Below, piece after piece: positions 15,535 to 39,927 of a stretch of DNA of 64,000 bases; position 1 is the first letter of the stretch; each line of letters begins with the position of its first letter. The DNA comes from Siphonodentalium dalli (taxonomy: Eukaryota > Mollusca > Scaphopoda > Gadilida > Siphonodentaliidae). The stretch is from the NCBI GenBank assembly GCA_032622095.1, contig CP136062.1, forward strand, positions 223,958,578 to 224,022,577, in the 5' to 3' direction. The notes beneath the pieces were generated by a model that searched no databases, was not told the origin of the DNA, and worked only from the letters and a program-made list of their open reading frames with translations. Made by a program: the position numbers and the translations under genes.

Positions 15535-18265
15535 AACGTACGCAGGAGAGATTTTACCGACACAAAAAGAAAGACACAAGATAATTTGGTGGTTTCAGAA
15601 GCGAAAAGACTACGATCTGATGCAACGCCAATCAATATAACAGAAGACTGCTTAATATGTGGAGTTCATACAAGCACTGATGTTAGACACCCAGATAGGT
15701 CCACACAAATGAGCCAAGCAGAGACCATCCCTTTCAGGGACAAGCTCTTACAATGCTGTGCGCATAGACAGGATGCTTTAGCATATGACGTGGAGAAGCG
15801 CATTCAAGGGCGCATTGACTTGGTAGCAGCATAGGCCGTTTACCACCACGGACATCTGACTCGATTCTTGCAAGGCAAGGATGTGAGTCAACCCGAAACA
15901 GGAAAAGCAGGTCGAAGATCAGATCAGGGTATGAAACATTGGTTCCAAACTATTTGTAATTGGTTCGAGACAGAAGCTGGTGCTGAATTATACACTGTTA
16001 GTGAGTTACATTCCAGAATGGTTGAATTCGCAGGCGAGTCAGAGGTTTATACTATTAAAAGTTTGAAAGGTAACTTAGAGGAATACTATGCAGAATTCAT
16101 TTTCTTCGCCGAGGTTAAGGGACGAAAGGATGTCGTTTGTTTTCGAAATATGGCCAAATTCATTATAAATGAAAAGTGGTACACTGATAAAAAACAGGAT
16201 TTAGATGAGGAGGCAGACAGGATTGTCTTGACTGCAGCAAGAATAATAAAAGCACAAATAAGGGAGGCCGATTTCAGTCGCGAATCTTATCCACCCAGTG
16301 ACGCTATATGTATTATTAGTCAGGGGCGAAATTGGATCCCGAATCACCTGCAAAGCCTACTAAAGATTTTAATTCGTCCGATGTCAAGCATAATAGCATC
16401 GGTCATTCCATTGTACAGGGTGCTCGTCCACATTCGGTTATAACACCAACGCTGTTTGGACTGGGTGTAGAAATGGAAAATGTGTTTGGTTCCAAATGGC
16501 TAGTGAACGAGTTATCCTGGTTGGGATTCTCTGTTACCCACGATGAAGTTGAGAGGTACAAGCAATCCGTCATTCAGACCGAAACGCCCAGTCAAATACT
16601 AACTGACTATGCACCCGGTGCCTTCGTTCAGTGGGTGGCAGATAATGTTGACCACAACATAGCAACTCTATATGGCAAGGGGACCTTCCATGGAATGGGG
16701 ATAGTTGCAATATATGCACCCATGAATCAATCAGCACTGAACATGAAATCGCGTGTAATCATGAGACAAAAGCGGTTGAGGGTTGATGAGCTCGTGAAAA
16801 ACAAAGGAGTGTCCATCTCCCAATATGTTGATGTTATTGGCAAAGGAATTTCCAATATCAAACTGAAACCTCTTCTTCATTTGGCCACACCATATACCCT
16901 CCCATCTGACCTCAGCACAGATCTGCTGTGGCACTCAGCATGCTTTTTCAGTAAGAGTGAAAAACCTAGCGCGAAATGGTCAGGTTTCATGCAAAGTGCT
17001 TACTCGCAGGACGACACTCTGACCGCTGAGAAATCAGATGTTCTGTTCCTTCCCATCATCGATCTGAATCCGTCAGATGACAATTGCATTTATTCTACAC
17101 TCATTTATGTTGAGGAACAGGCACGTAGATTGAACATCCATACGCCATATATCACTTTCGACCAGCCGTTGTGGCTCAAGGCTGTAAACATAATAAGTTC
17201 TAAGTCGATGAACATAGCGTGTAGGCTGGGCGGATTTCACACTGTAATGAGCTTCATGGGGAGTATCGGTTCGATGATGAAGGGGTCGTGGTTAGAAGAA
17301 GCTTTGGAGAAAGTGTACGGTCAGAACACAGTGACCCATATGATATCTGGAAAGGCAGCGTCGAGGGCATTGCGTGGTTACTACCTAGTTGAGGCTGCGC
17401 TTTTCAATAAGTTGATAGCTGAAGTTGTCCCAGTTGAAAAGGACGACAGTTCTGCGGACATCGAATCGGTAATGGAACAAGATGACATAGAAGCCTCGCA
17501 CATGCAACAGTGTGATGTACACGTTGTTGGTGAAAACACGATGGGCAAAATGCACCAGAGTGGAATGGACAGAATACAAATACTGCGTGAAGAGATTGAA
17601 ATTGGCGTTGTTCCTATATCCGCGGCTGCGGACTCAACTGAACTGTTGAAGGTCGAGCAATGTATCAATTGTTATAAATCACTGCTTGTCAAAGAATCCC
17701 TCACAGCAAAATTGTGGGTGCAGTATATGGATTATGTGCAAACCTTAAAGAACTGCATCCGTGCTGAGCGAACAGGGGATTGGAATCTGCATATTGTAAC
17801 ATTAGGGAAGATGCTGAACCTCTTCGCAGCCACTAGTCATATAAATTACGCAAAGAGCTGCAGACTATATCTCTAAATGATGCTAGAATTACCAGTGAAG
17901 CATCCTTGGGTACATCAGTGTTTGAGGAACATGGCTTGCATGTAGCCCGTAGAAGTAGCAGATTATGGGCGGGGTTATCAACCGATCTTATACACTGAAT
18001 AATGAGGTATTGAATGCTGAGGGGTGGGGTTGGGAACGACGTGGTGAGGATCTTTCCCCAGTCATGACTGACCAGAATGCAGCCCCAGACGAATTGCTCA
18101 AGTTTGTACGGTGCAAGTGTAAGATGTCATAAAAAACCATGTGACACCAATGTGTGTACATGTCGCAAACATGGTCTGAAATGTGTTATCGCTTGTGGAG
18201 ATTGTCGTGGAGAGGGCTGCGTGAATTCAGAAGAGGTTCTCATAGACGACGAGGGTGAGGTCTGA
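15535..18265 (+). pseudogene. broken copy of an uncharacterised multicopy gene with a CXC-type cysteine tail
   Basis: Three consecutive frames form one decayed protein. Segment 1 (about 15541-16430) has a C-x2-C pair (CLICG) and 'DLVAA' followed by an in-frame TAG at 15832; the frame then continues (YHHGHLTRF). Segment 2 (about 16380-17873) is the core, with GHSIVQGARP, LFGLGVEMENVFGSKWL, IDLNPSDD, FDQPLW, LGGFHTVMSFMGSIG and SGKAASRALRG. A TAA at 17874 interrupts LYL/MLELP. Segment 3 (about 17920-18265) has LWAGLSTDL, MTDQNAAPDELLKFV and then a cysteine cluster (CKCK ... CDTNVCTCRKHGLKC ... CGDCRGEGC) like Tesmin/TSO1 CXC zinc-binding domains. There are at least two nonsense codons and frame changes near 16375, 17920 and 18125. 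From memory this order of motifs recurs in high copy in many invertebrate genomes, often labelled as a CXC-domain protein. Mobile-element origin is inferred; the biochemical activity is unknown. Confidence 0.75.
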
Positions 18266-25019: not shown

Positions 25020-25232
25020 CAGTAATGCTCTAAATAATCGACTCCTTAACTACAGCATAATTATGGGTAAATTTTCAGGATTTAGTCGGAAATATGGCTT
25101 GTTGCCATTTATCGGAAAGCTCTTAGTGAGAGCTTTCCGATGAATGGCAACAATCCATATTTCCAACTAAATCCTGAAAAGTTACCCATAATTCTGCTGT
25201 GGTTAAGGAGTCGTTTATTTAGGGCATTACTG
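25020..25232. mobile_element. palindromic MITE, CAGTAATGC ends, TA target
   Basis: 213-bp inverted repeat in intron 1 with TA on both sides (25018-25019 and 25233-25234). The centre is 'agctcttagtgagagct'. Same family as 13699-13854. A transcript would fold into a stem of about 100 bp directly after the 5' splice site. Confidence 0.88.
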
Positions 25233-25265
25233 TATGTTATAGAGTGGATTTAGTATGTCTGACAT

Positions 25266-25360
25266 CTGCCGTATGAGGTCTACAGAGGGTGAATTTAGTG
25301 ACGCTATCCCGCACAGTGGGCTAGCATCACCAAATTCACCCTCTGGGAACCTCATTCTGC
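25266..25360. mobile_element. palindromic MITE, AGAGGGTGAATTTAGTGATG family
   Basis: The arms 'agagggtgaatttagtga' and 'tcaccaaattcaccctct' form a hairpin of about 95 bp. Other copies: 25547-25612 (partial), 26105-26722 (split), 32055-32248 (two), 39584-39672 and 39862-40323 (split). Confidence 0.75.
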
Positions 25361-25757
25361 TTAGACATCAACTGCTATGGGAGACCAAGGATCAGATTGA
25401 AGATCCCCAGTTGAAGTTGGTGATGTTCACCCATTAGTTCCCTCATTAAAATTTCATCTGAAAATTAGGGGATGTAGAAACTTAACAGAATGGAAAAAGT
25501 CACTAAAAACAATGTTAACTTGAGACTATATATACTGACCAGAAGATGAGGTCTATGCAGATTGAGGCCCCATAGGGTGAATTTAGTGATGCTAGACCTC
25601 TGCGGAGTGACAGACCCACTATATCAAGGCTTGTGCTTTCCCTCATTCGTAAATACTAATTTACATACGGTTGTTGAGCCTGAGAATGTTGAAAATCTGA
25701 TAGCCCAAACCATACCAGATTGAAAGAAACAAGAGAATATTTGAAAATATTGCTATA

Positions 25758-25973
25758 TGTAATGCCCTAAGTAATCGACTCCTAAACCACAGCAGAATTA
25801 TGGGTAACTTTTCAGGATTTAGTTGGAAATATGGCTTGTTGTCATTTATCGGAAAGCTCTCAGTGAGAGCTTTTCGATGAATGGCAACAATTAAGCCATA
25901 TTTTTGACTAAATCCTGAAAAGTTACCCATAATTCTGCTGTGGTTAAGGAGTCGATTACTTAGGGCATTACTG
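25758..25973. mobile_element. palindromic MITE, CAGTAATGCCC family, third copy
   Basis: 216-bp inverted repeat in intron 1, with arms 'aatgccctaagtaatcgact' and the complement. The right tip 'gggcattactg' is followed by TA; the left tip has lost the first bases. Confidence 0.85.
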
Positions 25974-26148
25974 TATGTAATTACCTTCAAATCTCAGAAG
26001 GGCTTGTGTGTCGTATCTAGTGAAGTGACCCATCTTATTTAACCAACATCAACTGGGGAACTTCAATCTGATCCTTAAGGTCGAACTCCCATAGCAGTTG
26101 AGGCCTCAGCAGAATAAGGTTCCCAGAGGGTGAATTTGGTGATGCTTG

Positions 26149-26357
26149 TGTAGCGGTCGCGTTGTAAATATAGAAGACCGCGATGACTTCTCTGATCGAG
26201 AGGTCTAGATCTCTTGGTCACGGTCGCTTTGTGTGATCACCGAAGTTAAGCAACCGTCGAGCTCGGTTGGTCCTTGGATGTGTGACCCGCTTGGGATTCC
26301 GGGTGCTGCCAACTTTTGGTGTGACTCCTGCACTTCTCTCTCTCTCGTTCCGTTACA
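26149..26357 (+). repeat. left LTR of the TRIM element
   Basis: 209 bp, TG...CA ends. It shares with the right LTR the word 'tgtaaatatagaag', the 5S-like unit, a CT-rich stretch and the end 'gttaca'. It lacks the 7-bp 'gttagac' seen in the right LTR. Confidence 0.88.
26203..26316 (+). ncRNA. 5S rRNA-like sequence inside the left LTR
   Basis: About 114 nt. The conserved parts are 'gatcaccgaagttaagca' (box A region), 'cttggatgtgtgacc' (box C region, one change from the usual ggatgggtgacc) and 'ccgggtgctg'. The 5' third is more diverged. It is probably an internal Pol III promoter relic rather than a functional rRNA gene. Confidence 0.75.
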
Positions 26358-26455
26358 CTGGGGGCTCGTCCGCTCCTCGGATTCTGTGTCATGATGCGAC
26401 TGCTCTGGGGGAGGACTCGTGTGAGATTCGGTGAATCGATCTAAAAAAGAAGTGG

Positions 26456-26666
26456 TGTAGCAGTTGCATTGTAAATATAGAAGGCCGATGACTTCTCTGA
26501 TCGAGAGGTCTAGATATCTTGGTCACGGTCGTTAGACGCTTTGTGTGATCACCGAAGTTAAGCAACGTCGAGCTCGGTTGGTCCTTGGATGGGTGACCGG
26601 CTTGGGATTCCGGGTGCTGCCAACTTTCGGTGCGACTCCCGCACTTCTCTCTCTTGTTCTGTTACA
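26456..26666 (+). repeat. right LTR of the TRIM element
   Basis: 211 bp, TGTAGC...TTACA, followed by the CTTG target duplication. Its 5S box C ('tggatgggtgaccg') is intact. Confidence 0.88.
26508..26627 (+). ncRNA. 5S rRNA-like sequence inside the right LTR
   Basis: Exactly 120 nt, the usual length of 5S rRNA, from 'gtctaga' to 'caactttc'. The 3' two thirds are close to metazoan 5S, with box A 'gaagttaagca', 'cggttggt', 'cttggatgggtgaccg' and 'ccgggtgctg'. A tandem genomic 5S array is unlikely because the repeat boundaries are LTR ends, not rDNA spacers. Confidence 0.78.
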
Positions 26667-26874
26667 CTTGCCTGCCATGCAGGATAGCGTCACTAAATTC
26701 ACCCTCTGGGGACCTTATTCTGCAAATGACAGACACACAATTTCAAGTCTTGGGAATGCAGGACTTCAATTTTTTCAATTTCGCATTATTGATGCCTGAT
26801 GCATGATGCTGACAGCCGAGATTTTGGCTGTTGTTTGGTTTGTATATCCGCATGTAAATACTAATAACTGTAAT

Positions 26875-32017: not shown

Positions 32018-32285
32018 TTGAGCAAGCCTTGAAATAGGGTGTCTGTCATTTGCAGAATGAGGTCCCCAGAGGGTGAATTTAGTGATGCTATCCCGCATAG
32101 CAGGCTAGCATCACCAAATTCACCCTCTGGGGACCTCATTCTGCTTACACCTCGGCAGAATGAGGTTCCCAGAGGGTGAATTTGGTGATGCTAGCCCGCT
32201 ATGCGGGGTAGCATCACTAAATTCACCCTCTGGGGACCTCATTCTGCAAATGACAGGCACCCTATTTCAAGGCTTGCATTTGAGC
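32018..32285. mobile_element. double palindromic MITE block
   Basis: Two hairpins (32055-32149 and 32158-32248) of the 'agagggtgaatttagtgatg' family lie 9 bp apart. They are framed by a further inverted pair ('aagccttgaaatagggtgtc' on the left, 'caccctatttcaaggctt' on the right), so the whole 268 bp is palindromic. Confidence 0.85.
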
Positions 32286-39505: not shown

Positions 39506-39583
39506 GTAAGCTCTATTTAATGGTGAATATTCCCCTCGTAGATAAGTTACCAGGCCTCAAAACATGGTTCTAAACATTTGCAT

Positions 39584-39672
39584 AAAGATGTCCCCAGAGG
39601 ATGAATTTAATGATGCTACCCCACACAGAAGGCTAGCATCACTAAATTCATATTCTGGGAACCTCATTATGC
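39584..39672. mobile_element. palindromic MITE, AGAGGGTGAATTTAGTGATG family
   Basis: The arms 'ccccagaggatgaatttaat' and 'ctaaattcatattctggga' are slightly diverged, so this is an older copy. It starts 78 bp after exon 8. Confidence 0.7.
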
Positions 39673-39927
39673 ATGGCTTCATCTGCTATAGGAGACCTAG
39701 TCTCAGAATTAAGTCAACAGATGGTGAGGATGTTGATGTGCACCCATTGGGCACCTCAATTATGCATTGTGTCGTCTGCCAATTTGGGGATATAGAAACA
39801 AAACTAAAAAACTTGTTAACTTGATAATAAAGATACTTTCCAGAGAAGATGAGGCCTGAGCAGAATGAGGGCCCCAGACGGTGAATAATTTAGTGCGGGG
39901 TAGCGTAACTAAATTCACCCTCTGGGG

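What the first reader, a model, noticed from the sequence alone, without database searches (positions are those of the whole stretch)
26145..26670. Cassandra-like TRIM retrotransposon with 5S rRNA in its LTRs, in an animal-type genome
Seen directly: two direct repeats of 209 and 211 bp with TG...CA ends; TGGGGGCTCGTCCG one base after the left LTR; a purine-rich tract against the right LTR; CTTG duplicated on both sides; a 98-bp non-coding interior. Each LTR contains a sense-strand 5S-like unit (120 nt in the right LTR) with recognisable box A and box C. Known: in plants, Cassandra TRIMs carry 5S rRNA in their LTRs. I am not sure whether any animal counterpart has been described. Inference: an independent capture of 5S, giving the LTR a Pol III promoter, mobilised by a tRNA-Pro-primed LTR retrotransposon of the same genome.
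Basis: partly seen in the sequence, partly recalled or inferred. Interest (0 to 1): 0.92.

Follow-up and report, generated by a model that had tools for sequence, protein, structure and literature searches.

The report
Mini-retrotransposon with a 5S gene promoter
This is one of hundreds of copies of a tiny, non-coding retrotransposon in an animal genome whose end repeats carry the promoter half of the 5S ribosomal RNA gene; the same kind of element was described in ribbon worms in 2024, but this family uses another primer tRNA, makes another target duplication, and one of its branches also carries a tRNA-like stretch.

Summary
The element at 26149-26666 is real: a 518-bp LTR-interior-LTR unit with TG...CA ends, a 14-nt tRNA-Pro primer site, a purine tract and a CTTG duplication. 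The genome (2.23 Gb, 9 contigs) holds about 584 sites matching an LTR 26-mer and 239 matching an interior 27-mer (reversed controls: 0). Of 21 full copies, 17 have exact 4-bp target duplications; paralogous empty sites lie in the window. Found here: matching host tRNA-Pro genes; a copy that has copied 38 nt of tRNA-Pro; a young Ty3/Gypsy family with the same primer site, similar LTR tips and a 4-bp duplication; and a second subfamily in which a tRNA-like 5' half is fused to the 5S promoter half. Most likely Pol III makes the template from the captured promoter and a Gypsy element mobilises it in trans; both steps are inferred. The host phylum is unresolved.

The parts
26145..26148 (+). left copy of the 4-bp target site duplication (CTTG)
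26149..26357 (+). 5' LTR (209 bp), TGTAGC...GTTACA
   Evidence: same ends in genome copies
26235..26308 (+). 5S-derived promoter half in the 5' LTR (host 5S positions 41-113)
   Evidence: 66 matches, 6 mismatches, 3 gaps to the host 5S gene found
26358..26455 (+). non-coding interior (98 bp)
   Evidence: interior 27-mer found 239 times in the genome
26359..26372 (+). primer binding site, 14 nt complementary to the 3' end of tRNA-Pro
   Evidence: host tRNA-Pro(AGG) genes with this 3' half; tRNA-Pro read-through copy L094
26443..26455 (+). purine-rich tract (AAAAAAGAAGTGG), decayed relative to other copies
   Evidence: read; other copies end ...AAGAACGGGGGAGTAG or ...GAGGAAGGGAGGAA
26456..26666 (+). 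3' LTR (211 bp)
26547..26619 (+). 5S-derived promoter half in the 3' LTR
   Evidence: 66 of 73 identical to the host 5S gene, no gaps
26554..26566 (+). box A of 5S (GAAGTTAAGCAAC), identical to the host gene
26586..26598 (+). box C of 5S (TGGATGGGTGACC), identical to the host gene
26667..26670 (+). right copy of the target site duplication (CTTG)
25253..25383 (-). unoccupied paralogue of the insertion site (same foldback repeat without the TRIM)
   Evidence: 86% over 131 bp, alignment runs across the joined flanks
32025..32153 (-). second unoccupied paralogue of the insertion site
   Evidence: 90% over 129 bp

Best explanation
The element is a copy of a non-autonomous LTR retrotransposon (TRIM) whose LTRs carry a captured 5S rRNA promoter (the TRIMp3 kind). 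Shown: LTRs, tRNA-Pro primer site, purine tract, 4-bp target duplications, empty sites, solo LTRs, tandem arrays, hundreds of copies, no coding sequence, and a 5S promoter half nearly identical to the host's 5S genes. Inferred: Pol III, recruited to the internal 5S boxes, transcribes from inside the 5' LTR through the interior into the 3' LTR; tRNA-Pro primes reverse transcription; the proteins come in trans from a Ty3/Gypsy element of the same genome.
For: Same boundaries in many dispersed copies; 584 LTR and 239 interior sites, controls 0. 17 of 21 full copies with exact 4-bp duplications, offset control 0; isolated solo LTRs with 4-bp duplications. Empty sites. 5S part of the subfamily-A majority LTR 69 of 73 identical to the host 5S gene, the first 53 nt identical; between subfamilies the 5S core is the best conserved region, 0.87 against 0.67-0.80 elsewhere. 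Host tRNA-Pro genes match the primer site, and one copy holds a 38-nt read-through of tRNA-Pro. LTRs and interior mostly lack TTTT, a Pol III stop: 0 of 20 subfamily-B LTRs against 76% of shuffles, 12 of 69 subfamily-A LTRs against 61%. A Ty3/Gypsy family with RT/RNase H, the same primer site, LTR ends TGTA...GTTACA and a 4-bp duplication TATG, and copies with identical LTR ends.
Against: No transcript data. Within subfamily A the 5S core is not better conserved than the rest of the LTR. The Gypsy candidate shares nothing with the TRIM beyond primer site and tips; LTR tips and tRNA-Pro sites are short signals and several other tRNA-Pro-primed families exist. The lack of TTTT rests on only two related sequences.
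Confidence: 0.85

Rival explanations
1. The family is a lineage of Ajax inherited from a common ancestor (or moved horizontally), not an independent capture; its primer tRNA and duplication length changed later.
For: Both are short TRIMs whose LTRs hold only the 5S promoter half; Helenus lineages are reported to change primer tRNA. Host phylum here is open and could be close to nemerteans.
Against: Primer site tRNA-Pro here, tRNA-Leu in Ajax; 4-bp duplications here, 5-bp in Ajax.
Confidence: 0.3
2. The 5S stretch is a passive remnant (for example a 5S-derived SINE that landed in an LTR) and the element is transcribed by Pol II from the rest of its LTR.
For: Within subfamily A the 5S part is not specially conserved; no transcripts were available.
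Against: Boxes A and C of the majority sequence are identical to the host gene, and the 5S core is the most conserved part between subfamilies.
Confidence: 0.12
3. A chance arrangement of 5S pseudogenes or a tandem 5S array.
For: Head-to-tail LTR-interior arrays exist.
Against: Identical boundaries, 4-bp duplications, primer site and empty sites at dispersed loci; true 5S genes sit in other arrays.
Confidence: 0.01

Closest known systems
Ajax (5S-promoter TRIM of the nemerteans Notospermus geniculatus and Lineus longissimus; Kojima 2024, PMC10886601)
   Same: TRIM; LTR holds only the promoter part of 5S with box A, IE and box C; no coding sequence; hundreds of copies; animal host.
   Different: Ajax: 421-434 bp, tRNA-Leu primer site, 5-bp duplications. 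Here: 518-535 bp, tRNA-Pro primer site, 4-bp duplications, and a subfamily with a tRNA-like stretch. Sequence relation not testable here.
Cassandra (plants)
   Same: TRIM with a 5S promoter in its LTRs; tandem arrays known.
   Different: Plant lineage with a methionine primer site; host here is not a plant.
Helenus (TRIM with tRNA-like LTR sequence; PMC10886601)
   Same: Animal Helenus makes 4-bp duplications and is thought to depend on Gypsy; subfamily B has a tRNA-like stretch.
   Different: The main promoter match here is 5S; no complete tRNA with intact A and B boxes was found.
5S-derived SINEs (SINE3) and 5S/tRNA composite SINEs (the latter from general knowledge)
   Same: Captured 5S, or 5S plus tRNA, promoters for Pol III.
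   Different: SINEs have no LTRs and move by LINE machinery; these elements have LTRs, a primer site and 4-bp duplications.

Membership tests
TRIM | two short LTRs with TG...CA ends around a short non-coding interior | tested here: met
TRIM | primer binding site and polypurine tract | tested here: met
   purine tract of the window copy decayed
TRIM | target site duplications and dispersed copies | tested here: met
TRIMp3 (Pol III promoter TRIMs) | small-RNA-gene promoter sequence inside the LTRs | tested here: met
TRIMp3 (Pol III promoter TRIMs) | actual Pol III transcription | not testable with these tools
   no RNA data
Ajax | partial 5S covering box A, IE and box C in the LTR | tested here: met
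   against the description
Ajax | tRNA-Leu primer site | tested here: not met
   primer site is tRNA-Pro
Ajax | 5-bp target duplications | tested here: not met
   17 of 21 full copies 4 bp, none 5 bp
Ajax | sequence similarity to Ajax outside 5S | not testable with these tools
   Ajax sequences are in a supplement that was not available
Cassandra | plant host and methionine primer site | tested here: not met
   TTAGGG repeats at a contig end, tRNA-Pro primer site; Cassandra description
Helenus | tRNA-derived LTR sequence with boxes A and B | tested here: inconclusive
   subfamily B has a D-arm-like stretch (0 of 1000 shuffles score as high) and a B-box-like motif with one mismatch; degraded in the window copy
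mobilised by Ty3/Gypsy | autonomous element with the same primer site, tips and duplication length in the genome | tested here: met
   mobilisation itself not shown

The most novel reading that the evidence does not exclude
A separate origin of 5S-driven TRIMs in animals through a composite promoter: an LTR that held a tRNA-like (Helenus-type) Pol III promoter took in the promoter half of the host's 5S gene, giving a tRNA/5S chimeric LTR (subfamily B), while subfamily A (the window copy) lost the tRNA character. It is mobilised by a tRNA-Pro-primed Ty3/Gypsy that is still young in the same genome.
Probability: 0.4. Interest if true: 0.65.

Novelty: new variant of a known kind. Interest (0 to 1): 0.5.

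Why it matters
Only one animal 5S-TRIM group (Ajax, two ribbon worms) turned up in the library searched. A second family with another primer, another duplication length and a possible tRNA/5S composite promoter suggests that LTR elements have taken up Pol III promoters repeatedly. The genome also holds a candidate autonomous partner, a link reported as missing for Cassandra (PMC10886601), and a copy that has recorded its tRNA primer, so trans-mobilisation can be tested directly.

Tried and rejected
Rfam at its usual thresholds does not see the 5S part because only the promoter half is there. A 120-nt 5S unit was rejected. A SINE source for the tRNA-like plus 5S block was looked for: every sampled site of the tRNA-like 29-mer was an LTR of this family. 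Two other tRNA-Pro-primed loci (L116, L118) gave no coding domains. A shared interior between TRIM and Gypsy was not found. Host identity: mollusc haemocyanin, annelid erythrocruorin linker and arthropod cuticle family gave no match, each without a positive control; the 18S search failed. A desert scorpion genome of 2.23 Gb in nine chromosomes (PMC11126328) was considered and set aside: its N50 is 280 Mb (here about 264 Mb from the contig lengths printed), and TTAGGG repeats plus the missing cuticle proteins speak against an arthropod. Limpet, chiton and scaphopod were considered without a result.

Full report
What is there. The described unit is exact: 5' LTR 26149-26357, a single C, the 14-nt stretch TGGGGGCTCGTCCG (26359-26372), a 98-bp interior with a purine tract, and a 3' LTR 26456-26666, flanked by CTTG on both sides. 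The two LTRs differ by 11 substitutions and 5 gap events (K2P 0.056); other full copies range from 0.014 to 0.079.

It is a mobile family. A search of the window's own genome (2.23 Gb, 9 contigs) found dozens of near-full-length copies with the same ends; only 40 of 2002 candidates were scored. A 26-mer of the LTR occurs 584 times with at most 2 mismatches and a 27-mer of the interior 239 times; the reversed control patterns occur 0 times. Of 21 full copies with both flanks readable, 17 have an exact 4-bp target duplication and 20 have one with at most one mismatch; none has a 5-bp one, and an offset control gave 0. Isolated solo LTRs also carry 4-bp duplications, and head-to-tail arrays with three or four LTRs occur. 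The window copy sits in the middle of a foldback, MITE-like repeat; unoccupied paralogues at 25253-25383 and 32025-32153 align across the joined flanks.

The 5S part. Host 5S genes were found in tandem arrays. The LTR matches only positions 41-113 of the host gene: 66 of 73 in the right LTR, and no better than shuffles upstream of that. The majority sequence of 69 distinct subfamily-A LTRs matches the host gene at 69 of 73 positions, the first 53 without a difference, which covers box A and box C. Rfam's full 5S model therefore scores below its cut-off. Between subfamilies A and B this core is the best conserved part of the LTR, although within A it is not.

A second subfamily (B; L085, L086, L088, L096-L113) has the same LTR tips, primer site and 4-bp duplications. 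Directly in front of its 5S part lies GCTTCTTTGGTCCAGTGGTTAAGACGCCTTGTC, which resembles the D-arm half of tRNA-Ser, Leu or Glu (score 13, reached by 0 of 1000 shuffles; the tRNA sequences used were written from memory). Downstream, GGTGCGACTCC differs from the tRNA B-box consensus at one position; alone this is within reach of chance, 6% of shuffles. In subfamily A the tRNA-like stretch is degraded. This suggests a tRNA/5S composite promoter but does not prove it.

The primer. The primer site is complementary to the 3' end of tRNA-Pro, and tRNA-Pro(AGG) genes with exactly this 3' half stand in tandem arrays in the genome. In L094 a 38-nt copy of the tRNA-Pro 3' half (one mismatch) lies between two LTR ends. 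This is what copying into the primer, stopping near the anticodon, would leave; the join shares CTCTCG with the LTR end. A palindrome of the same stretch occurs at another LTR family (L087).

The likely partner. 42 exact 18-nt tRNA-Pro primer sites were found, on TRIM copies and on several longer LTR families. One of these families has RT and RNase H domains, a protease-like match, a CCHC knuckle and a PNMA/Gag-like match. Its pol is closest to Ty3 among solved structures. It has LTR ends TGTAATAG...GGTTACA, a purine tract AAGGGGAGAA and a 4-bp duplication TATG, and copies whose LTR ends are 100% identical. Apart from primer site and tips it shares no sequence with the TRIM, which is expected if the TRIM LTR uses a different polymerase. 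The mobilisation itself is inferred.

Mechanism. Inferred: the 5S boxes recruit Pol III, the transcript starts inside the 5' LTR and runs through the interior into the 3' LTR. The subfamily-B LTRs hold no TTTT and most subfamily-A LTRs hold none, against 61-76% of shuffles, so read-through is plausible. tRNA-Pro then primes reverse transcription with proteins from the Gypsy family, and integration leaves 4-bp duplications.

Comparison. Kojima (2024, PMC10886601) described Ajax, TRIMs with the 5S promoter part in their LTRs, from two nemerteans, with a tRNA-Leu primer site and 5-bp duplications, and grouped Ajax, Helenus and Cassandra as TRIMp3. The present family meets the TRIMp3 description at the sequence level but fails two stated features of Ajax. 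Whether it is homologous to Ajax could not be tested. A text search for the group's names found no further animal case in the library.

Host. One contig end carries (TTAGGG)n. Cuticle-protein, mollusc-haemocyanin and annelid-linker families gave no match, without positive controls. From memory the 5S gene looks lophotrochozoan. The phylum stays open, which limits the claim of a new host lineage.

Noticed in passing
26109-26148 with 26671-26723; 25253-25383; 32025-32274; 39575-39694: A foldback, MITE-like repeat present several times in the window; the TRIM is inserted in one copy.
   Followed up: partly
25091-25161 and 25793-25937: Long near-perfect inverted repeats that the miRNA models of Rfam hit weakly; probably foldback transposons.
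   Followed up: no
C3:244.76-245.66 Mb of G000 (L115): Long tandem arrays of tRNA-Pro(AGG) genes, about 1.4 kb per unit.
   Followed up: partly
L087 (C2:216064820-216065393): A palindrome made of two inverted 38-nt tRNA-Pro 3' halves between LTR-like ends of another tRNA-Pro-primed family.
   Followed up: no
L114 (C7:72165055-72171606): Two near-identical subfamily-B copies about 6 kb apart flank a stretch with long LINE-like reading frames.
   Followed up: no
15835-17876: Two overlapping long open frames without a Pfam match in the first; the second was not searched.
   Followed up: no
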